Source: an uncultured Oscillospiraceae bacterium
GTDB taxonomy: Bacteria; Bacillota; Clostridia; Oscillospirales; Oscillospiraceae
Direction of reading: 5' to 3'
Assembly: GCA_947624385.1 (NCBI GenBank)
Contig: CANQJZ010000001.1
Span: 56,947 to 120,946 of the forward strand
DNA: 64,000 nt
Below the pieces are notes generated by a model. That model did not search any database. It saw nothing but the letters and a program-made list of their open reading frames with translations, and was not told the DNA's origin. The translations under genes and the position numbers were made by a program. Below are positions 1 through 9,283 of this stretch, in pieces. Each line of letters starts with the position of its first letter. Within the stretch, counting starts at the first letter, position 1.

Positions 1-218
1 TCACCGGTGCCGGTCATACTCTCGTTGGCCCCGCGGGTCCGTTCCCGGAAGGCCCCGGTCCGCACCGGCATGTATGGCAGCATATCCTCCGCCGCCATCT
101 CGTGCAGCGCGTCGTAGGCCCTTTCCAGCCGGTCTGACAGCTCGGTCCCGTCGAAGGCCACCCGAACGGTGCCGTTTTCCGTTCCAAAGCTCTTGACCCT
201 GAACCGCACAGCGCTCAC
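1..218 (-). CDS. phage minor capsid / head-closure type protein, cut by window edge (C-terminus missing)
   Basis: GTG start at 218 overlapping the upstream stop; translation VSAVRFRVKSFGTENGTVRVAFDGTELSDRLERAYDALHEMAAEDMLPYMPVRTGAFRERT... with 'MPVRTGAFR' typical of minor capsid/gp10-like proteins; position after capsid and connector genes. Confidence 0.6.
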   Translation of the reverse strand, partial: MSAVRFRVKSFGTENGTVRVAFDGTELSDRLERAYDALHEMAAEDMLPYMPVRTGAFRERTRGANESMTGTG

Positions 219-658
219 CGCCCCACGATCTCAAAGTGGGGCAGCGCCCCGTACCGGTGTACGCTCCGCACGGCCCAGACCCCGTCCCGCTCCCGGCACA
301 GGTGCTCGTAAAAGCCCTCCGGCCACCGGTTGTCGGCCACGGGCTCGTCCTCCGGCCACGCACCGGGAACAAAGAAGTCGAAGTCCTCTCCTTGGGCGAA
401 CGTGACATACAGCTCCGGCTCGTCCGCCTTCTGCCACACCTTTGGCGGCAGCCAGATCTTGCCTTTCACGGTCAGCGCGCCATCCAGAGGCACATAGGGG
501 ATGAGGGCCACGGTCTCGCCGGTCTGCTTCCAGCCGTACCCGGCGGCGGCCTGTACCCTCTCCACGCTCAGCTGCACCCCCTCGATCACGGTGGGGTACC
601 ACACGTCCCCCTCCTGCCCCTTCTTCCGGTTAAAAATCGTTATCGTGTCGTTATAAAT
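215..658 (-). CDS. phage minor capsid protein (DUF6751-like), start codon not canonical
   Basis: Reading frame YNDTITIFNRKKGQEGDVWYPTVIEGVQLSVERVQAAAGYGWKQTGETVALIPYV...; placed between connector and minor capsid genes; candidate start is ATT at 656-658. Confidence 0.55.
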   Translation of the reverse strand: MYNDTITIFNRKKGQEGDVWYPTVIEGVQLSVERVQAAAGYGWKQTGETVALIPYVPLDGALTVKGKIWLPPKVWQKADEPELYVTFAQGEDFDFFVPGAWPEDEPVADNRWPEGFYEHLCRERDGVWAVRSVHRYGALPHFEIVGR

Positions 659-676
659 AAAATCACTTCCTTTTTC

Positions 677-723
677 GCCTCCCCTGTGTAAGGGGAGGTG
701 GCGCGCAGCGCCGGAGGGGTTGT
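677..723. repeat. two-hairpin intergenic repeat unit (CCTCCCCTGTGTAAGGGGAGG + variable stem + GGAGGGGTTGT)
   Basis: GCCTCCCCTGTGTAAGGGGAGGTGGCGCGCAGCGCCGGAGGGGTTGT; same unit recurs across the window. Confidence 0.9.
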
Positions 724-732
724 CCCGCTCCC

Positions 733-1170
733 TCACGGCGCCACCGGGTACAACCCCATATACAAGAGGTTGACCCCGTTGGCGTCCCGCACCCCGGCCA
801 GATACCGCTCCACCGTTTCCCGGCAGCGCGCCTCTCTGTCCTGGGCCGATACCGCCGGCGCGGCGAAGCTGACGGACTCGCTTCCGGCGGTGACGGCTGT
901 CACCACCCGGCCCGTCACGGTCCCGTCGTCGCGGCTGACGAGGCTCTCGGCCTGGTCCGCCTGCCACAGCAGATGCACCAGCGCGGCCTCGCACCGCTCC
1001 ACGGCCTCTCTGTCCTGCTCGTTCACCGGCGGGGCCGCTTCCAGCTTCCGCAGCCCGTCCAGCCCGGTGGTGGCCCTGTCCATGACCCGGCGGGCCTCCC
1101 ACCGGAGCCGGTCAAAGGCGCTCTCGTCCGGCCCGTCCGGATAGAGCGCCGCGTACCGGGCGTAGTCCAT
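733..1170 (-). CDS. phage head-tail connector (gp6-like) protein
   Basis: MDYARYAALYPDGPDESAFDRLRWEARRVMDRATTG...; starts at capsid stop codon; typical position and size. Confidence 0.7.
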   Translation of the reverse strand: MDYARYAALYPDGPDESAFDRLRWEARRVMDRATTGLDGLRKLEAAPPVNEQDREAVERCEAALVHLLWQADQAESLVSRDDGTVTGRVVTAVTAGSESVSFAAPAVSAQDREARCRETVERYLAGVRDANGVNLLYMGLYPVAP

Positions 1171-2039
1171 CAGTCCCCCGCCCCGATGGTGGCGACCACG
1201 ATGCCGTCCAGCTTCTCGGCCAGCAGCTGCATGCCGCACACCACCGTATCCGCGGCGGTCATGTTGGTGTAGTCGGCCTCTTCATGGATGCCCACATAGC
1301 CCGTCTCGTCGCTGGTGAAGGCGAAGGCCTCGTTCAGGTCCGCGCCGTTGACGGGGATGTAATAGAGCACCAGGTTGTCCTTGGCGGTGGCGTAGATCTT
1401 CCCCTTGGGCACGCTGGCATTGAGGATGACGGTGCCCAGACCCATGAAGTTCTCCACGTAGCTCAGCCCGAAGGCGGTCTGCATGCTGACGGGGGTAGTC
1501 GCCAGGTAGTCGGCCACGTCCAGCGGGTTCATGAAGTAAGCGCAGGCCACGCCGTCGTCGTCGAACAGCACCTGCAGCTGGCCCCACGCCTGGGCGATGG
1601 CCTCCTGGAACGTGGCGCCCTTGGCCGTACCGGTGCCGGTGGCCAGGAAGTCGAAGAAGTCCTTGCGCAGACTCTTCTGCACGTCCCGGAGCATCTCGTC
1701 GGTAATCATGTCCACGGCCTGGTCGTAGCCCCGGTCGATGATGGCCTCGGCGCTGGTGGCCTTGCGCCACTTCTTCAGGGTGATCTCCTTGACGGCCACG
1801 GCCTGTGTCTCGTACTTGCTCAGGGGGATAGCCTCGCCCTCGGCCACCACGCCGCTTGCCAGCGTGCCGGATGCCTTATAGGTTTTCAGCACCGCCCCCG
1901 CCTGCTTGGGGATCTTCCGCGTCACGCCCATAGCCTCCATGAGCTTGGTGACAGAGCCGGAGAACGCGCTCACGAACTCGATCTCCCGCACCCGCGCCAG
2001 GGCGTCTTTTGTGATGATGTTTTCTTCTGCCATTTTCAT
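1170..2039 (-). CDS. phage major capsid protein
   Basis: 289 aa, immediately downstream of a scaffold-like gene; capsid-like composition and order. Confidence 0.8.
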   Translation of the reverse strand: MKMAEENIITKDALARVREIEFVSAFSGSVTKLMEAMGVTRKIPKQAGAVLKTYKASGTLASGVVAEGEAIPLSKYETQAVAVKEITLKKWRKATSAEAIIDRGYDQAVDMITDEMLRDVQKSLRKDFFDFLATGTGTAKGATFQEAIAQAWGQLQVLFDDDGVACAYFMNPLDVADYLATTPVSMQTAFGLSYVENFMGLGTVILNASVPKGKIYATAKDNLVLYYIPVNGADLNEAFAFTSDETGYVGIHEEADYTNMTAADTVVCGMQLLAEKLDGIVVATIGAGD

Positions 2040-2599
2040 TCTCCTTTAAAAATTTCGATGTTTTCCGCGATGGCTCTCCGCCGTGCGGCCCGGTCGGGGA
2101 TAGCCATGATCTTTTCCCGGGTCATGCCCGTCGCGCCGGACCCGCCGTCGGACATCGGCTGGGTGAACCGGGCCATGCCGGCCCGCATCTCGTCCAGCTT
2201 CTCGTCCACGAAGGCGGACCCATCCTTTTCCCGTATGGCCTCCATGAGCGCTTCCAGCCCCTGGATACGCCCGCTCTCCAGCGTCAGGCCCGCCGCCCGG
2301 ACCTGTCCGGCCACGTCCCGCCTTGCCGCCTCGGAGGTAAACCTGTACCCCGCCAGCGCCGTTTTTAAGGCGTCGTCGAAGTCCCGCTGGGCGAGATGAG
2401 CGTCAAAGGCGCTTTGCGCGTCCCGCAGCGCCCCGTCGGCCGCCTCGGCCCGGGCCTTCCACTGGTCCCGCGCCGCTTCCAGCTTGGCCACCTCCTTGAC
2501 GGTTTTGTAATTTTCCCGGAATCTGGCCTGGAACGCCCCGGCCTTCTCCGCCGGTATCTCCACGCCGAACTCCTTCAGGATGCTCTCGATGTTCTGCAT
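2036..2599 (-). CDS. phage scaffold protein
   Basis: Coiled-coil-rich 187 aa (FRENYKTVKEVAKLEAARDQWKARAEAADGALRDAQSAFDAHL), just upstream of capsid, 4-nt overlap. Confidence 0.75.
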   Translation of the reverse strand: MQNIESILKEFGVEIPAEKAGAFQARFRENYKTVKEVAKLEAARDQWKARAEAADGALRDAQSAFDAHLAQRDFDDALKTALAGYRFTSEAARRDVAGQVRAAGLTLESGRIQGLEALMEAIREKDGSAFVDEKLDEMRAGMARFTQPMSDGGSGATGMTREKIMAIPDRAARRRAIAENIEIFKGE

Positions 2600-2682
2600 G
2601 TCTTATCCTCCCACATGATTTTTATACCGCGCTGTCCACGGTCCGGACTCCGGGCGATATACCGCGCCCGCCGGTGGGTATG

Positions 2683-2717
2683 AAAAAAGCACCGCACCTC
2701 CTCGGTGCCGTGCTTTT
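2683..2717 (-). terminator. intrinsic terminator
   Basis: Minus strand AAAAGCACGGCACCGAGGAGGTGCGGTGCTTTTTT just after the stop of 2745..2933. Confidence 0.85.
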
Positions 2718-2744
2718 AACATCTGATATGTGATTATTCTGGTT

Positions 2745-2933
2745 TTATTCCAGCGGGTCGCTGGTCAGCCAGCCATCGTGTTCTTTCATTTCCCTTTTGG
2801 TGATGATGGGAACGATGGCACGATATTCCTTTTTGATCTGCTCGATCTCTTCCTGCGACTTCCCTTTCACGGCCTGGAAGAAAACGGTCCGAGCCTGTGG
2901 ATAAGTCATTGTTTCGCTGAATAAACTGCTCAT
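2745..2933 (-). CDS. small protein, second gene of a moron-like cassette
   Basis: MSSLFSETMTYPQARTVFFQAVKGKSQEEIEQIKKEYRAIVPIITKREMKEHDGWLTSDPLE; overlaps the upstream stop by 4 nt; followed by terminator. Confidence 0.7.
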   Translation of the reverse strand: MSSLFSETMTYPQARTVFFQAVKGKSQEEIEQIKKEYRAIVPIITKREMKEHDGWLTSDPLE

Positions 2934-3472
2934 AGCTTTCCTCCTTCCAAATGCCACTTGAAATGGCGCGCTATTCTGAACGCCTGTTCTCTGATGGACA
3001 TGTAGTTCAACTCTCTTATGCTCCACGAAAAGCTCTCCGGCCTGGTGAGCATATCGTCGTCTACCTCTGGCCGGAGCCATCCCATGACTTCTTCAAACTC
3101 TTCTGCGGATGGCCGCTCTCCGTCTCCTATCCACGCCGAATAAACATCCCTGTTTCTCGTGACCACAGACACCCGCTCGATATTGTCGCCGGTCAGGAGC
3201 TTGAGATCGTCCGCGGACAAAGGCGTTACGTTCGTATGCGCATGATACAGGCAAAGTCCCGGAGCGCTCAAAATATTTTTCGGTATTTGCACGCCGTTCG
3301 GCTTGCCGCTTGTAAAAACCTCTGTGAATCTTCCGCCGGTCCGGCCCTGACCATACTCGACTTCTCCCGCAATGGCCCGCCGATGCAGATCGTCTAAGGC
3401 GGCTCGTTCCTCCTGGCCGATCGTCAGCGGTTCAAAGTCCTTGAAGTCATCTTTGTATCTCTCTGGGATCAC
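2930..3472 (-). CDS. JAB/JAMM-like phage-associated protein
   Basis: GTG start with SD GGAAGGA; HxHx6SxxD motif HAHTNVTPLSADDL resembles JAB-type metal-site motifs. Confidence 0.6.
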   Translation of the reverse strand: MIPERYKDDFKDFEPLTIGQEERAALDDLHRRAIAGEVEYGQGRTGGRFTEVFTSGKPNGVQIPKNILSAPGLCLYHAHTNVTPLSADDLKLLTGDNIERVSVVTRNRDVYSAWIGDGERPSAEEFEEVMGWLRPEVDDDMLTRPESFSWSIRELNYMSIREQAFRIARHFKWHLEGGKL

Positions 3473-3506
3473 CGGCTCGTTTCCTTCCTGTCTAGCATAT
3501 CCCTCT

Positions 3507-3534
3507 CTATTTTGTATTATACTCTTTTCCGCGC
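3507..3534 (-). promoter_or_regulatory. sigma-A type promoter inside the 3' end of the portal gene
   Basis: Minus strand TTGCAA-16 bp-TATAAT (TTGCAAAAAGCGCGGAAAAGAGTATAAT), just upstream of 2930..3472. Confidence 0.7.
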
Positions 3535-4904
3535 TTTTTGCAAGCTCCCCCTTCTCCCACCAACATCTTTGCCTCGTCCTCGGTATATCCCTCGAAATTG
3601 ACGAGATAGGCCCACGCGGGAAACACGCCCTCGCGCACATACCCCCAATACCGGTTCCTGTCCTCTTCCCGGCTATAGGTGATATCCCCGAAGTCGCAGA
3701 CCGCCTCCCACTGGCCCACCGGCGTCACGTCGTACAGGTCCGCCCACTTGTCCAGCGCGTACAGCAGCCCATTCATCGCGCTTTCCAGCTTATCGCGCAC
3801 GTCCTTGACCCGCTGGATGGTCCGCCGGTCGTCCGACTCCACCTGTGTTGCCGTGACCAGGCCGGCGCGCTCGTTGAACACGAAATAGCCGTTGGAGAAC
3901 CCGCACTTGAACCCGATCTGGCCCAGCAGCGCGTTCACGCCCACCAACCGCTCGGTGGTATTGATTTGCGGGTCGATCTCCTGATAATACTCGTCCGGCC
4001 CGAACCCGCTGACCTTCCGGGCCTGGCGGGGCAGCTTCACGCTGTCCGACCCGCCGAACCCGGTCCTGCTCCCCGGCACGTCCAGGAGCCTATCGTCGAT
4101 GAGGGCGATCCGGGCGCTGTCGTATATCTCTCCGGTCATGCGGCTGTACGCCACGTCCAGGTCCTTCAGCTCCTCCAGCGCGTCGGCGAACACAGGCGTA
4201 CCCAGCGCGCCGCCGTCCACGTTGTTGACCCCGGGCATACGCAGCACGGCGAACAGCGGCCTTTCCAGTCCCTGTACCGCCACGTCCCTGGCCAATCCCG
4301 CCCAAGGCGTGGCCTCGATGGGCACGGCCCTGCTCATGTCCTGCCGGCTGTGGCCCACGAAGCACCGGTTGCCGATCTCATAGACCCCGCCGTCGGTGAA
4401 CCGGTGGTATTCCAGCCGGGTGTACCACCGCTCAGTCTCGGCCTCATAGGCCCGGCTGACGAACACCGCCCCCACGATCTCGTCGTCCCGCACGTCCACG
4501 GCCACGAACTGCTCCGGCGTCAGCGCCTCCACGCCCTGGCCGTTGGGCTTTAAGATGACGGTGCCCCAGGCGCAGCCCTTCTCGGTCCACTCCCGCAGCC
4601 GGGGATAGAACCCGTCCACCTGGCTTTGCAGCCACGCGGCCCGTTGACTGCCGCCGCCCACGGTGATCTTGGTGCCCAGCATCGCCAGCCTGGCCGTCTC
4701 CGAGCACACAGTCCTGGCGAAGTTCACGGTCCGGATACCCTCGTCGGCGTCCGCCCAGTCCGGGTGCCCGCCGTAAATATCCGCGCACCGCCGGAGAAAC
4801 GCGTCCATCCCGGCCGACGCGGCCGGCCTGACGCCGAACGTCTCTGTCGCCTTGCTCCCCATGCGCATATCAAACCACTCCTTTACTCTGGCAAATAATC
4901 TCAC
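3507..4904 (-). CDS. phage portal protein (SPP1 gp6-like)
   Basis: 465 aa, FVFNERAGLVTATQVESDDRRTIQRVKDVRDKLESAMNGLLYALD region typical of SPP1-type portals; downstream of terminase. Confidence 0.85.
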   Translation of the reverse strand: MRLFARVKEWFDMRMGSKATETFGVRPAASAGMDAFLRRCADIYGGHPDWADADEGIRTVNFARTVCSETARLAMLGTKITVGGGSQRAAWLQSQVDGFYPRLREWTEKGCAWGTVILKPNGQGVEALTPEQFVAVDVRDDEIVGAVFVSRAYEAETERWYTRLEYHRFTDGGVYEIGNRCFVGHSRQDMSRAVPIEATPWAGLARDVAVQGLERPLFAVLRMPGVNNVDGGALGTPVFADALEELKDLDVAYSRMTGEIYDSARIALIDDRLLDVPGSRTGFGGSDSVKLPRQARKVSGFGPDEYYQEIDPQINTTERLVGVNALLGQIGFKCGFSNGYFVFNERAGLVTATQVESDDRRTIQRVKDVRDKLESAMNGLLYALDKWADLYDVTPVGQWEAVCDFGDITYSREEDRNRYWGYVREGVFPAWAYLVNFEGYTEDEAKMLVGEGGACKKRGKEYNTK

Positions 4905-4952
4905 TGTTTTTTCCTCCTGACCTCACGCGCTGGTCCCGCGTCAAGGTATGAC

Positions 4953-4984
4953 AAAGCCGCTGGCCAACCGGCCAACGGCTTTGC
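4953..4984 (-). terminator. strong hairpin downstream of 5011..5601
   Basis: CAAAGCCGTTGGCCGGTTGGCCAGCGGCTTTG on minus strand; lacks a good U-tract. Confidence 0.5.
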
Positions 4985-5010
4985 ATTTCCTATTTTTATT
5001 AATCTTTCCT

Positions 5011-5601
5011 TTATTTTTCAACCACATGGATACAATCCAGAATCTGCGAAACGGCATCAGCGTATTCTTCCTCGTCTACCCTGCCCCATTCACCAAAAAC
5101 GAAGTCATAAACGCACCCGCTCGTCAGAAAGAAGTAGTGATCCACGATGTGCGTTCCATCATCGACCGCGTTTTTTACCTCCAGCTTTACCAGCAGCGCG
5201 ACCCTGCCGTCGATCTCGCACAGTGCCCGCTGTTTGTCTACCGGGTCCCCCTGTATGAGGCTCTCTGCAAAGTTATCCAGCGTGTACACCGTGTCCACAT
5301 CATCCAGGGACAAAAGATCAAAGCTTTGCATTTCCAGCTTATATGCCTGGACGGAAAGCATATGGGCTCTATACCCGTCGCTTAATTCCTTGCTGTACCA
5401 ATAAAGCGCATCTGAGACCGGCATATCGCGCAGATCGTGTGCTTCGCTGACGGTCCAGTCCTCCGGAACGGCATAGGTTAATTCCCACCAGGAATCCTCC
5501 ACGTATCCGTCGGGGAGGTCGTCTCCACCAGCAGCCGCCGTGCAAGGCAGCAGCGCAGCCAGGGCAACGCCGATTAGCAAAACGGAAATAATTCGTTTCA
5601 T
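5011..5601 (-). CDS. secreted protein with signal peptide, prophage moron
   Basis: MKRIISVLLIGVALAALLPCTAAAGGDDLPDGYVEDSWWELTYAVPEDW...; own promoter and hairpin; flanked by 21-bp direct repeats. Confidence 0.75.
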   Translation of the reverse strand: MKRIISVLLIGVALAALLPCTAAAGGDDLPDGYVEDSWWELTYAVPEDWTVSEAHDLRDMPVSDALYWYSKELSDGYRAHMLSVQAYKLEMQSFDLLSLDDVDTVYTLDNFAESLIQGDPVDKQRALCEIDGRVALLVKLEVKNAVDDGTHIVDHYFFLTSGCVYDFVFGEWGRVDEEEYADAVSQILDCIHVVEK

Positions 5602-5620
5602 CTTTCACACCCCCAGCCGA

Positions 5621-5650
5621 TAATAGCACAACCGGCCAAGCGTGACAAGG
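5621..5650 (-). promoter_or_regulatory. sigma-A promoter of the moron gene
   Basis: Minus strand TTGTCA-17 bp-TATTAT (TTGTCACGCTTGGCCGGTTGTGCTATTAT). Confidence 0.75.
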
Positions 5651-5673
5651 CGAAATGTCGGGCGGCCGACCGC

Positions 5674-6912
5674 TCACGCGCTGGTCCCGCGTCGGCTGAA
5701 CAGCCCCTCGTACGCGTACCGCAGCGCCGATATGGCGTGATCGTCCTTATCCGGGTAACCGCTTATGATATTCCCGGTCCTGTCCCGCTGGTACTCATAG
5801 CTGACGATCTCCCGGTGTGCCCCCGGCGTACGCAGCGGGTCTACCACGATGGTCCGGCCCTGGAGCCACTTGAACCCGTAATCCACGCTGCCCGGACCCT
5901 TGACCGCCCCGCGGGCCGGCAGGCCCATAGCCCTGTAATCGGCGATACTCTTGGGCTCTGCGCTGTCGCAGGTGATGGGGTAGTCCATGTACCCCTTATC
6001 CCGTATCCACGCCCCCGTCTTGGCGTTGGGCGTTCTATTGACGTACAGCTCGTCCAGCAAAAATATCTTCTCTCTGGCCCTGTCATAGGCCGTGCGCAGG
6101 AACGCGAACTTGTCCGGGAACCACCCCCAGTCCACGCCCTGAAATATCCTGTCGAACCCGTCTATCTCCTCGTCTTCTATCCGCCGGACCTCCACCCGCT
6201 CGAACACGTCCGCGCCTGTTCCGGTACACTCGCCCAGGTATATGTGCCGCCAGCCCCGCTCATCGGTATTTTTCTTGTGCTCGGCCTCGGCCAAAAACGC
6301 CTCGCCCAGCCATTCCCTTGGCACGTCCAGATAGGTGCTCCTGTGGCACAGCCGGTCGGGCCGGACGATCTGACTGTCCAGGTTGGCCCAGTTGTCCCGT
6401 GAAAGCGGCGGGTTATAGCTCTCGAAGTTCCAGAACATGGGCCCGCCCCGCATGGTGGACTGCAAGATCGTGTCGATCTCCGTCCGACCCGCGAACTGGT
6501 CCTTTTCCTCGAAGTGGGTGACGGCGATGTACCCGAACGGCGCCTTGATGCTCTTGAACTTGCCGGTGTCGTCCGCACCCCGGAACATGATCTTCTGTCC
6601 CGTTGGCTCATACACCAGCTCCATGGGCGACAGCCGCGCCGTCCACAGCCCGCCCATGCCAAGCTTTTCCACCGCCCACTGGTATTGGGCGAACACGCTT
6701 TCCCGCATGGTATTGGCCACCTTGCGCACCACCATCGCGTGGGTATCCGGGTGCTGGGTCAGTATGAGCGGCACCAGCAGGCTCACCGTGGAGCTTTTGA
6801 GGCTGCCCCGCCCTCCGGCCAGGTCATAGTGGGTGTGCCCATGCCGGAGCACATCTCCGGCCAGCTCCCGGAACGCCGGCCCGATGACCTCGCTCAGCCG
6901 TATTTCACTCAT
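5674..6912 (-). CDS. phage terminase large subunit (PBSX family)
   Basis: 412 aa with Walker A-like GGRGSLKSS, FRGADDTGKFKSIKAPFG, HFEEKDQF; C-terminal nuclease-like DDHAISALRYAYEG. Confidence 0.9.
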   Translation of the reverse strand: MSEIRLSEVIGPAFRELAGDVLRHGHTHYDLAGGRGSLKSSTVSLLVPLILTQHPDTHAMVVRKVANTMRESVFAQYQWAVEKLGMGGLWTARLSPMELVYEPTGQKIMFRGADDTGKFKSIKAPFGYIAVTHFEEKDQFAGRTEIDTILQSTMRGGPMFWNFESYNPPLSRDNWANLDSQIVRPDRLCHRSTYLDVPREWLGEAFLAEAEHKKNTDERGWRHIYLGECTGTGADVFERVEVRRIEDEEIDGFDRIFQGVDWGWFPDKFAFLRTAYDRAREKIFLLDELYVNRTPNAKTGAWIRDKGYMDYPITCDSAEPKSIADYRAMGLPARGAVKGPGSVDYGFKWLQGRTIVVDPLRTPGAHREIVSYEYQRDRTGNIISGYPDKDDHAISALRYAYEGLFSRRGTSA

Positions 6913-6940
6913 CTAATAAAATCCTCTTCCATATTGAACG

Positions 6941-7047
6941 GCCCCCCTGTGTAAGGGGGGCTGTCACGCGTACGCGTGACTGGAGGGTTGTTGACAACCC
7001 CTCCGACCCGGCTGACGCCGGGCCACTTCCCCTTGCACAGGGGAGGC
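6941..7047. repeat. long inverted pair of two-hairpin repeat units
   Basis: GCCCCCCTGTGTAAGGGGGGCTGTCACGCGTACGCGTGACTGGAGGGTTGT...ACAACCCCTCCGACCCGGCTGACGCCGGGCCACTTCCCCTTGCACAGGGGAGGC. Confidence 0.9.
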
Positions 7048-7080
7048 TTGCAAAACGGATTGCTCCCTCGTGCTCCGACG

Positions 7081-7550
7081 TCACACATCAATGATGACCG
7101 TGACACCCTCGTCGTCCTCGTCCTGCTCCGGGCTTTTCTGCCACCGCAGCTTTTCCCGGTTGGTCAGCCAGAACTGCACGGCCTTCATATCCGGCGGCAC
7201 GTGCCTTTCCCGGTCCACCATTTCGATCACCTCCCGGTCCTCCCACTGGCCCGTATGCGGGTCCCGGACCCGTTTTTTCACCCGCATAGGCACCTTGACC
7301 GTCACGTTATAGCCCAGCGCCTTTTTATAAAGCGCGTTTTCTACCTGTTCCGTGGTGCCCTCGCCCCGGCCCCGGGCCACGGCCTGGGCCACGTCCTCGT
7401 GCGTCCCGATCCACCGGTTCAGCGTCCTGCGGGTCACACCCAGGTTTTTGGCCAGCTGCGTACTCGTGACGCCCTCTCTGGCCCAGGCCTCGATACGTTC
7501 CAGTCCCTCGTCCGTCAGCCACTGTTCATATTTCCTGCCGCCCGTGCCAT
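7081..7550 (-). pseudogene. phage terminase small subunit, N-terminus frameshifted
   Basis: SD AGGAGG then ATG at 7550 gives MARAAGNMNSG*; the other frame gives RKYEQWLTDEGLERIEAWAREGVTSTQLAKNLGVTRRTLNRWIGTHEDV...; one extra base restores a full small terminase. Confidence 0.75.
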
Positions 7551-7602
7551 TTCACCTCCTCGCGCCGCAGTATGACCCCCATTTTGCCGCTGGAAAGGAT
7601 CC

Positions 7603-7720
7603 GGCCCCCTCTGTCGTCGGAGCTCTCTGGGCTAGGTCGTGATTTGCCGCAAGCGGCAAACCCCGAATAGCCCGCGGCTCCTCCTCTCCCCACGCGGCAG
7701 GCGTGCCGCGTGGGGGCCCC
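7603..7720. repeat. ~115-bp multi-hairpin repeat module (M2), copy 1
   Basis: GGCCCCCTCTGTCGTCGGAGC...TTTGCCGCAAGCGGCAAA...CCCCACGCGGCAGGCGTGCCGCGTGGGGGCCCC. Confidence 0.85.
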
Positions 7721-7745
7721 GGCGTCAGCCGCTTCCATATCGCAT

Positions 7746-7800
7746 GCCTCCCCTGTGTAAGGGGAGGTGGCGCGGCTCAAGCCGCGCCGGAAGGGTTGTC
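7746..7800. repeat. two-hairpin repeat unit
   Basis: GCCTCCCCTGTGTAAGGGGAGGTGGCGCGGCTCAAGCCGCGCCGGAAGGGTTGTC. Confidence 0.9.
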
Positions 7801-7847
7801 ACGCCCCTCCGGCCTTCCCGCTTTTCGGTGATACCAAAATACCACAT

Positions 7848-8285
7848 TCAGCTGGCCGTGAGCGGCCAATCTTCATCCACCAGCCCGAAATTGACCGCCA
7901 CCCGGTACAAGATATCCCGGTTCCACCGCCGGGCGGTCCGCTCGGACACGCCCACCTCCCACGCCGCCGCGTACAGCTTGTGTGTCTTATCCCAGTACAC
8001 CAGCTTCACCAGCTTCAGCCGCAGCGCCCCGTCGGGCTTTTCGGCGGCGTATGCCAGCGCGTCCCGCACGGCCTCGTACTCCCGCTGCTCCGCCGGAGAA
8101 AGCTCCCGCAGCGCCACGGTCTCCGTGGTCCTGCCCGGACCCTTGCCGCCCGCCGGCTCCGCGCCGTACCGTCCCGTCATGCGCACGGCCCGCTTTTCCT
8201 CCAGCGCCGCCGCCCGCTCCGGGTACCTTCTCATCATCCCCTGCACATAGGACCACCAGATATTCCTCGGTGAACTCATCGTCAT
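7848..8285 (-). CDS. ArpU/RinA-like late phage transcriptional regulator with C-terminal HTH
   Basis: MTMSSPRNIWWSYVQGMMRRYPERAAALEE...LVKLVYWDKTHKLYAAAWEVGVSERTARRWNRDILYRVAVNFGL; just upstream of the terminase genes. Confidence 0.7.
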   Translation of the reverse strand: MTMSSPRNIWWSYVQGMMRRYPERAAALEEKRAVRMTGRYGAEPAGGKGPGRTTETVALRELSPAEQREYEAVRDALAYAAEKPDGALRLKLVKLVYWDKTHKLYAAAWEVGVSERTARRWNRDILYRVAVNFGLVDEDWPLTAS

Positions 8286-8300
8286 TTCCTCCTTTGCGTT

Positions 8301-8449
8301 TTGCGCTATGCAATTTCCGCTCCCAAAAAATTGGGCGTTTTCCCGCCCAACGTCTAGCGTAGTGCAAATTTTAGCGCAACGCAACAAGATTGTCAACCCT
8401 TTTTCGCAAAATTTTTGCGCAATGCACATATTTCTCTTGCGCTCCGCAA
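8301..8449. promoter_or_regulatory. array of five 13-bp palindromic operator-like sites TTGCG-N3-YGCAA
   Basis: TTGCGCTATGCAA (8301), TAGCGTAGTGCAA (8355), TAGCGCAACGCAA (8372), TTGCGCAATGCAC (8415), TTGCGCTCCGCAA (8437) between repressor and late regulator. Confidence 0.75.
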
Positions 8450-8582
8450 TTTCCTGTGCTATACTGGCCGCAAACGGCCAGTATATATCATTTAAGGCGG
8501 TTTTGCTCCCGGCTGACGCCGGAACCGCAAAACGTGCCACATTGGGCCGCAAACGGCCAACTATAGAAAGGAGGACCTCACC

Positions 8583-9218
8583 ATGGACAACAAACAGCTT
8601 GGCGCCCGTATCCGCCAGCGCCGACAGGAGCTGGGTCTGACCCAGGGGGACGTGGCCGCCGCCATCGGCGTGGCTGTCTCCACGGTCCAGCGCTACGAGA
8701 CCGGCGCCATCGACAAGCTGAAAATGCCGGTGCTGGACGCCATCGCCCGGGCCCTGCAGACCACCCCCGCCCAGCTCATGGGGACCCCCCAGCCGACGCA
8801 CCCGGCCGGGGCCATGCCCTACCGCCCCATGCACCGTATCCCCATCCTGGGCCGCATCAGCGCGGGCCTTCCCCTGTACGCAGACGAGCACATCGAGGGG
8901 TACACCTACACGGACCTGAACGGCGGCGCGGAGTATTTCGCCCTGCGCGTGTCCGGGGACAGCATGAACGCCCTGCGCATGAACGACGGGGACCTTCTGA
9001 TCGTCCGCCGGCAGGACATCGTGGACAACGGGGACATCGCCGTGGTCCTGGTGGACGACGAGGACGCCACCGTGAAGCGTTTTTACCGGGAGGGGGACCG
9101 GATCACTCTGATGCCTCAGTCCACCAACCCGGCCCACCAGCCCCAGGTCTACGACGCCCGCAAGACCCGTATCCGCATCCAGGGCCGCGTCCTCCGCTGC
9201 GAGATCTCTTACTGCTGA
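8583..9218 (+). CDS. XRE-family phage repressor with S24/LexA-like peptidase domain
   Basis: N-terminal HTH LGARIRQRRQELGLTQGDVAAAIGVAVSTVQRYETG; C-terminal ALRVSGDSMNALRMNDGDLLIV...VKRFYREGDRITLMPQS. Confidence 0.92.
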   Translation: MDNKQLGARIRQRRQELGLTQGDVAAAIGVAVSTVQRYETGAIDKLKMPVLDAIARALQTTPAQLMGTPQPTHPAGAMPYRPMHRIPILGRISAGLPLYADEHIEGYTYTDLNGGAEYFALRVSGDSMNALRMNDGDLLIVRRQDIVDNGDIAVVLVDDEDATVKRFYREGDRITLMPQSTNPAHQPQVYDARKTRIRIQGRVLRCEISYC

Positions 9219-9283
9219 AATGACGCCCTCCCCTCGCGCCGCAGCGCGGCCCCCATTCCTCGCCAGCCTTCGCGCCGCAGCGC

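What the first reader, a model, noticed from the sequence alone, without database searches (positions are those of the whole stretch)
4922..5693. Prophage moron: secreted protein with own promoter, flanked by 21-bp direct repeats of the terminase 3' end
Seen: CTCACGCGCTGGTCCCGCGTC occurs at 4922-4942 and 5673-5693. The right copy includes the terminase stop codon and the left copy sits just before the portal gene. Between them are a TTGTCA-17-TATTAT promoter, a signal-peptide gene (5011..5601) and a strong hairpin. This fits a ~751-bp insertion that duplicated the terminase 3' end, the classic layout of a lysogen-expressed moron.
Basis: partly seen in the sequence, partly recalled or inferred. 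Interest (0 to 1): 0.75.

Follow-up and report, generated by a model that had tools for sequence, protein, structure and literature searches.

The report
Prophage moron encoding secreted PsbP-like protein
A prophage in a gut bacterium (family Oscillospiraceae) has recently gained a self-contained extra gene for an exported protein, slipped between two packaging genes and leaving a 21-base duplicated scar; this is a well-made new example of a known kind of gene addition (a 'moron'), not a new mechanism.

Summary
A perfect 21-bp direct repeat (4922-4942, 5673-5693; 0 expected) brackets 730 unique bp between the terminase large-subunit gene and the portal gene. The predicted empty site exists: an orthologous prophage at the same chromosomal site in a sister species (TerL 98.5% identical) joins terminase to portal through 17 nt with one 21-mer copy (19/21). 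Four close relatives are empty, so this is an insertion in the window's lineage. The cargo has its own extended -10 promoter, a signal peptide, a strong hairpin and 53% GC against 63-65%. The only homologue found (35% identity) lies at another junction of a related prophage and carries the same promoter (TTGTCA-17-TATCAT), so promoter plus gene behaves as a cassette. The protein matches no Pfam, PHROG or NCBIfam family, but its predicted structure matches the Mog1/PsbP fold. One other relative shows a terminase-end duplication around an unrelated insert; about ten other inserts at this junction do not, so the repeat looks like a recombination scar, not a transposon mark. The moron reading is supported. 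Expression and function are untested; superinfection exclusion is my best guess.

The parts
4922..4942 (.). left (portal-side) copy of the 21-bp direct repeat; duplicated TerL 3' end
   Evidence: single copy in relatives without the insert
5673..5693 (.). right copy of the 21-bp repeat; the genuine TerL 3' end including the stop codon
4943..5672 (.). 730 bp of unique inserted DNA, 52.7% GC, single copy in the genome
   Evidence: GC; no other copy in 35 genomes; absent from relatives
5011..5601 (-). moron CDS, 196 aa: signal peptide plus predicted Mog1/PsbP-fold domain
5620..5648 (-). promoter TTGTCA-17-TATTAT with TG extended -10
   Evidence: same arrangement upstream of the G012 homologue
4952..4983 (-). 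GC-rich hairpin after the moron (terminator candidate without a clear T run)
5674..6912 (-). terminase large subunit
   Evidence: Pfam PF04466/PF17288
3507..4904 (-). portal protein (GTG start, AGGAGG ribosome-binding site just upstream)
   Evidence: phrog_533; sequence
7081..7437 (-). terminase small subunit
   Evidence: phrog_309
8583..9218 (+). CI/LexA-like S24 repressor at the right end of the prophage

Best explanation
It is a moron: a complete transcription unit (promoter, ribosome-binding site, gene for an exported protein, hairpin) inserted between the terminase and portal genes of a resident prophage after its host lineage split from the sister species G017. Shown by sequence: the insertion, its polarity, the single ancestral junction, the promoter-gene cassette, the foreign composition. 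Predicted: export and a Mog1/PsbP fold. Inferred: the 21-bp repeat is the scar of an illegitimate 'leave and return' event (template switching or end joining) in which synthesis left the prophage just after the TerL stop, copied the foreign unit, and re-entered 21 bp upstream. Only events that keep both the TerL stop and the portal ribosome-binding site, in a junction of 15-20 nt, survive selection, which favours small duplications. Inferred: the promoter is active while the late genes are repressed, the protein is exported, and at the cell surface it binds a partner. The most likely role is superinfection exclusion (about 0.3), ahead of envelope or other lysogen fitness functions. The confidence given is for the moron reading, not for the role.
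For: Empty sites in G017, G022:C52, G029 and G013; G017 and G022 are empty at the orthologous chromosomal locus beside the acetyl-CoA hydrolase gene, with dS of repressor, packaging and head genes 0.10-0.25 against 0.16 for the host gene between window and G017. Both repeat copies share two bases that differ from G017, so the duplication copied this lineage's own TerL end. GC 52.7% and GC3 61% against GC3 84-86% for neighbours. Homologue in G012 at 35% identity between portal and a MuF-like gene with the same extended -10 promoter. Hairpin z -4.4. Structure model pTM 0.67; most of the 23 PDB hits at E up to 0.001 are PsbP proteins, with Mog1 among them. A second terminase-end duplication around a different insert in G034.
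Against: No RNA data; the hairpin lacks a T run. Only one genome, in 65 contigs, carries this allele. Two homologues are too few to measure selection on the gene. The fold covers many functions, so it does not point to one. The template-switch route is inferred from one perfect and one diverged scar.
Confidence: 0.82

Rival explanations
1. The repeat comes from recombination with a related phage that already carried terminase end plus moron (homologous crossover on the terminase side, illegitimate join on the portal side).
For: Gives the same product; prophages of this type are common in the genus (25 of 35 genomes) and terminase-portal cargo is frequent.
Against: Both copies are identical to each other and share two bases that differ from the nearest relative, so any donor must have been nearly identical here; no donor found.
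Confidence: 0.3
2. The gene is an ordinary late phage gene (for example a virion or assembly accessory) that happens to be variable, not a lysogeny gene.
For: Same strand as the late genes, so late transcription could also read it; the terminase-portal gap often holds small genes.
Against: Own extended -10 promoter, shared with the distant homologue; signal peptide; foreign composition; absent from nearly all relatives.
Confidence: 0.12
3. A small mobile element (MITE-like or other) inserted with a 21-bp target-site duplication.
For: Perfect direct repeats on both sides; a second terminase-end duplication at the same junction in G034.
Against: Single copy in the genome and none in 34 relatives; no terminal inverted repeats found; no transposase; 21 bp is long for a target duplication; the G034 scar is longer and diverged (52 nt, 85%) and surrounds unrelated DNA; the other inserts at this junction show no such repeat.
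Confidence: 0.05
4. Assembly chimera in a draft genome.
For: Single genome; direct repeats at both ends.
Against: Both joins fall at gene boundaries and keep every signal intact; a homologous cassette with the same promoter lies in another prophage of the same kind.
Confidence: 0.03

Closest known systems
Phage morons (Hendrix, Juhala and colleagues; criteria restated in PMC2920897)
   Same: Inserted between adjacent phage genes, own transcription signals, different GC, absent from close relatives, junction used as a hotspot
   Different: Flanked by a perfect 21-bp duplication of the upstream gene end; expression not measured
Ltp-type superinfection-exclusion lipoproteins (phage TP-J34, PMC3952083)
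   Same: Prophage-encoded exported protein of a Gram-positive host, considered a moron by its authors; a phage protein named 'host cell surface-exposed lipoprotein' is the top viral fold match
   Different: No clear lipobox and no match to an Ltp family in Pfam; the link rests on a fold match to a 406-aa protein by name only
PsbP_2 / DcrB / Mog1 fold proteins
   Same: Predicted fold; host lipoproteins with a similar N-terminal motif match PsbP_2
   Different: The window protein itself reaches no Pfam family; its signal peptide looks like type I rather than lipoprotein type
SPP1 morons inside the virion gene cluster (PMC6316719)
   Same: Extra genes bracketed by transcription signals inside the head and packaging cluster
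   Different: Different position and genes

Membership tests
Moron | Inserted between two genes that are adjacent in relatives | tested here: met
   Terminase and portal 15-21 nt apart in G017, G022:C52, G029, G013
Moron | Own promoter | tested here: met
   Sequence level only: 10/12 with extended -10, shared with the distant homologue
Moron | Own terminator | tested here: inconclusive
   Strong hairpin without a T run
Moron | GC content differs from the phage | tested here: met
   52.7% against 63-65%; GC3 61% against 84-86%
Moron | Found in more than one phage | tested here: met
   Homologue in a G012 prophage at another junction; that prophage is of the same broad kind
Moron | Expressed in the lysogen and dispensable for lytic growth | not testable with these tools
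   No RNA data or culture; absence from close relatives suggests dispensability
Mog1/PsbP fold | Fold match in structure comparison | tested here: met
   Models with pTM 0.53 and 0.67; PsbP, Mog1, LpqN, DcrB and Tsi3 among the best PDB matches
Pfam PsbP_2 (PF18933) | Profile match of the protein itself | tested here: not met
   No match for the window protein up to E=10; among the six aligned members four match PsbP_2, not the window protein
Ltp superinfection-exclusion lipoproteins | Lipobox and Ltp domain | tested here: not met
   No Ltp match; sequence LLPCTAAAGG fits no lipobox consensus, and an AAA type I site follows; LPAM_1 matches only at E 0.6, below its cut-off
Insertion sequence or MITE | Terminal inverted repeats, transposase or multiple copies | tested here: not met

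The most novel reading that the evidence does not exclude
The roughly 21-kb prophage has no tyrosine or serine recombinase on its contig, lies at the same site in sister species and is under purifying selection, so it may be a domesticated particle-forming element (gene-transfer-agent-like), and the PsbP-like exported protein may be a cargo that protects or modifies the producing cells rather than a classical lysogenic-conversion gene.
Probability: 0.12. Interest if true: 0.65.

Novelty: new member of a known kind. Interest (0 to 1): 0.36.

Why it matters
It is a moron gain that can be placed on a tree: occupied and empty states of the same resident prophage at the same chromosomal site, with a perfect scar. 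That makes the usually lost insertion step visible and testable, including possible precise loss between the 21-bp repeats. It also shows the terminase-portal junction as a cargo site in this phage group and adds a prophage protein of the Mog1/PsbP fold, which includes DcrB, Tsi3 and T6SS effector chaperones, to the candidates for phage-encoded surface functions.

Tried and rejected
Transposon or MITE reading: single copy, no inverted termini. Search for the protein in viral contigs, phage records and 400 family genomes: nothing beyond G012 (made with the G012 homologue, gave one chance hit). The genome-contig scan with the moron found nothing. Three viral-contig scans got no answer from the machine, so the exact junction was not sought there. 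Defence library: no match. Profile comparison of the mature moron with host lipoproteins aligned only 36 columns (E 1.3e-4, probability 54%), so homology by sequence is only suggestive. Rfam over the window: no match. Att-like repeats at the prophage ends: none convincing.

Full report
Observation. The repeat is not chance. The flanking genes are the terminase large subunit (Pfam PF04466 and PF17288) and the portal protein (phrog_533). The prophage spans about 21 kb of contig C1 of the host genome, from about 44,950 to 66,200; the window holds its right end, with a CI/LexA-like repressor next to a host acetyl-CoA hydrolase gene, named from its sequence by me. The nearest relatives whose titles could be read are Oscillospiraceae metagenome-assembled genomes with 'Lapin' isolate names, presumably rabbit gut.

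Empty site. Terminase relatives occur in 25 of 35 genomes of the genus. In G017, with TerL 98.5% and portal 96.7% identical, the terminase stop is followed by 17 nt and the portal start, with one copy of the 21-mer (GGCGCGGGACAAGCGCGTGAG, 19 of 21). G022:C52, G029 and G013:C9 are empty too. In G017 and G022 the prophage lies at the same chromosomal place, next to the same host gene. Synonymous divergence between window and G017 is 0.10-0.25 for the repressor, terminase, portal, scaffold and capsid genes (0.35 for the tape measure gene) against 0.16 for the host gene. These are therefore orthologous resident prophages, and the insertion happened in the window's lineage after the split. Both repeat copies carry the two bases that distinguish this lineage from G017, so the duplicate was copied from its own terminase end.

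The cassette. The 730 bp have 52.7% GC, and the gene has GC3 of 61%, against GC3 of 84-86% in terminase and portal. There is no second copy in the genome or the genus. The only homologue found is in G012: 35% identical, placed between the portal gene and a MuF-like gene. Its upstream region has TTGTCA-17-TATCAT with the same TG extension and almost the same distance to the start codon (18 and 21 nt by my count). Such a promoter occurs in 0.13-0.18% of random stretches of that length. Promoter and gene therefore seem to travel together, although 35% identity means the two were separated long ago.

The scar. Of 51 surveyed loci (four of them fetched twice), 38 have at most 60 nt between terminase and portal. 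The others hold varied cargo: an HEIVH metallopeptidase-like gene, a DUF4417 gene, HNH-like genes, small zinc-ribbon-like genes and what looks like structured RNA (HEIVH, HNH and zinc-ribbon names are from motifs I read, not from a family match). Besides the window, one of them, G034 (L041), has a duplicated terminase end: 52 nt at 85%, with 22 nt exact, around a short insert with no evident gene. The rest have none. A repeat of variable length around unrelated inserts fits illegitimate recombination with a small backward re-entry, kept by selection because the terminase stop and the portal ribosome-binding site both stay intact. It does not fit a transposon. This step is inference. A slip between the repeats could also remove the moron exactly.

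The protein. There is no Pfam, PHROG, NCBIfam or PADLOC match. A two-sequence model (pTM 0.53) and a six-sequence model (pTM 0.67) both match the Mog1/PsbP fold. In the second, the 23 PDB matches at E up to 0.001 are mostly PsbP and include Mog1, with LpqN, Tsi3 and DcrB just behind. The second alignment includes the host lipoproteins, so it is not independent of the PsbP hypothesis; the first does not include them and gives the same answer. An order-wide profile search found host lipoproteins of about 170-180 aa with the motif P(E/D)G...PE(D/E)W; such members match PsbP_2 (best E 2.6e-10). Sequence comparison of the mature domains supports only 36 N-terminal columns, so descent from such lipoproteins is plausible, not shown. 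The phage versions appear to have a type I signal site, not a lipobox. The top viral fold match is named 'host cell surface-exposed lipoprotein', the name of the Ltp superinfection-exclusion family (PMC3952083). On this, and because prophage-encoded exported proteins often act there, I rank superinfection exclusion first, at about 0.3; the fold alone does not decide. Immunity proteins such as Tsi3 share the fold, so protection against a toxin is a second possibility.

Comparison with the known. By the criteria listed in PMC2920897 (insertion between phage genes, own signals, different GC, presence in more than one phage) this is a moron; terminator function and expression remain open. Morons inside a virion gene cluster and moron hotspots are both known (PMC6316719; PMC2920897). 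It is a new member of a known kind. The value lies in the matched occupied and empty states and the fresh scar.

Beyond the finding. The prophage's contig has no PF00589 or PF00239 recombinase, no convincing att-like repeats were found, and dN/dS of its genes is 0.01-0.22 against G017. It may be a domesticated element; this was not pursued further.

Noticed in passing
host genome G000:C1 about 44950-66200 (window 1-9250 is the right end): Prophage of about 21 kb with repressor, terminase, head, tail and endolysin genes but no tyrosine or serine recombinase on its contig; same site in G017 and G022; genes under purifying selection. Domesticated or gene-transfer-agent-like element possible.
   Followed up: partly
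L035:1140-1500 and L034:2670-2905: The terminase-portal gap of two relatives holds a similar tRNA-like, apparently structured RNA (ARAGORN calls an unusual tRNA with a 4-base anticodon in L035); no Rfam match there.
   Followed up: partly
L041:6015-6066 and 6181-6232: Separate duplication of the terminase 3' end (52 nt, 85%) around a short insert without an evident gene at the same junction.
   Followed up: yes
window 2745-3640: Second low-GC (53%) cassette between portal and scaffold genes, two ORFs of 236 and 111 aa; present in G022 (88-91%) and G029 (58-61%), absent at this place in G017; perhaps the toxin and immunity end of a MuF-type gene.
   Followed up: partly
L164 and L173, terminase-portal gap: HNH/AP2-like endonuclease genes at the same junction in more distant relatives, judged by motif only.
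   Followed up: no
L034:5987-6083: skipping-rope RNA (RF02924) above the gathering score in a relative.
   Followed up: no
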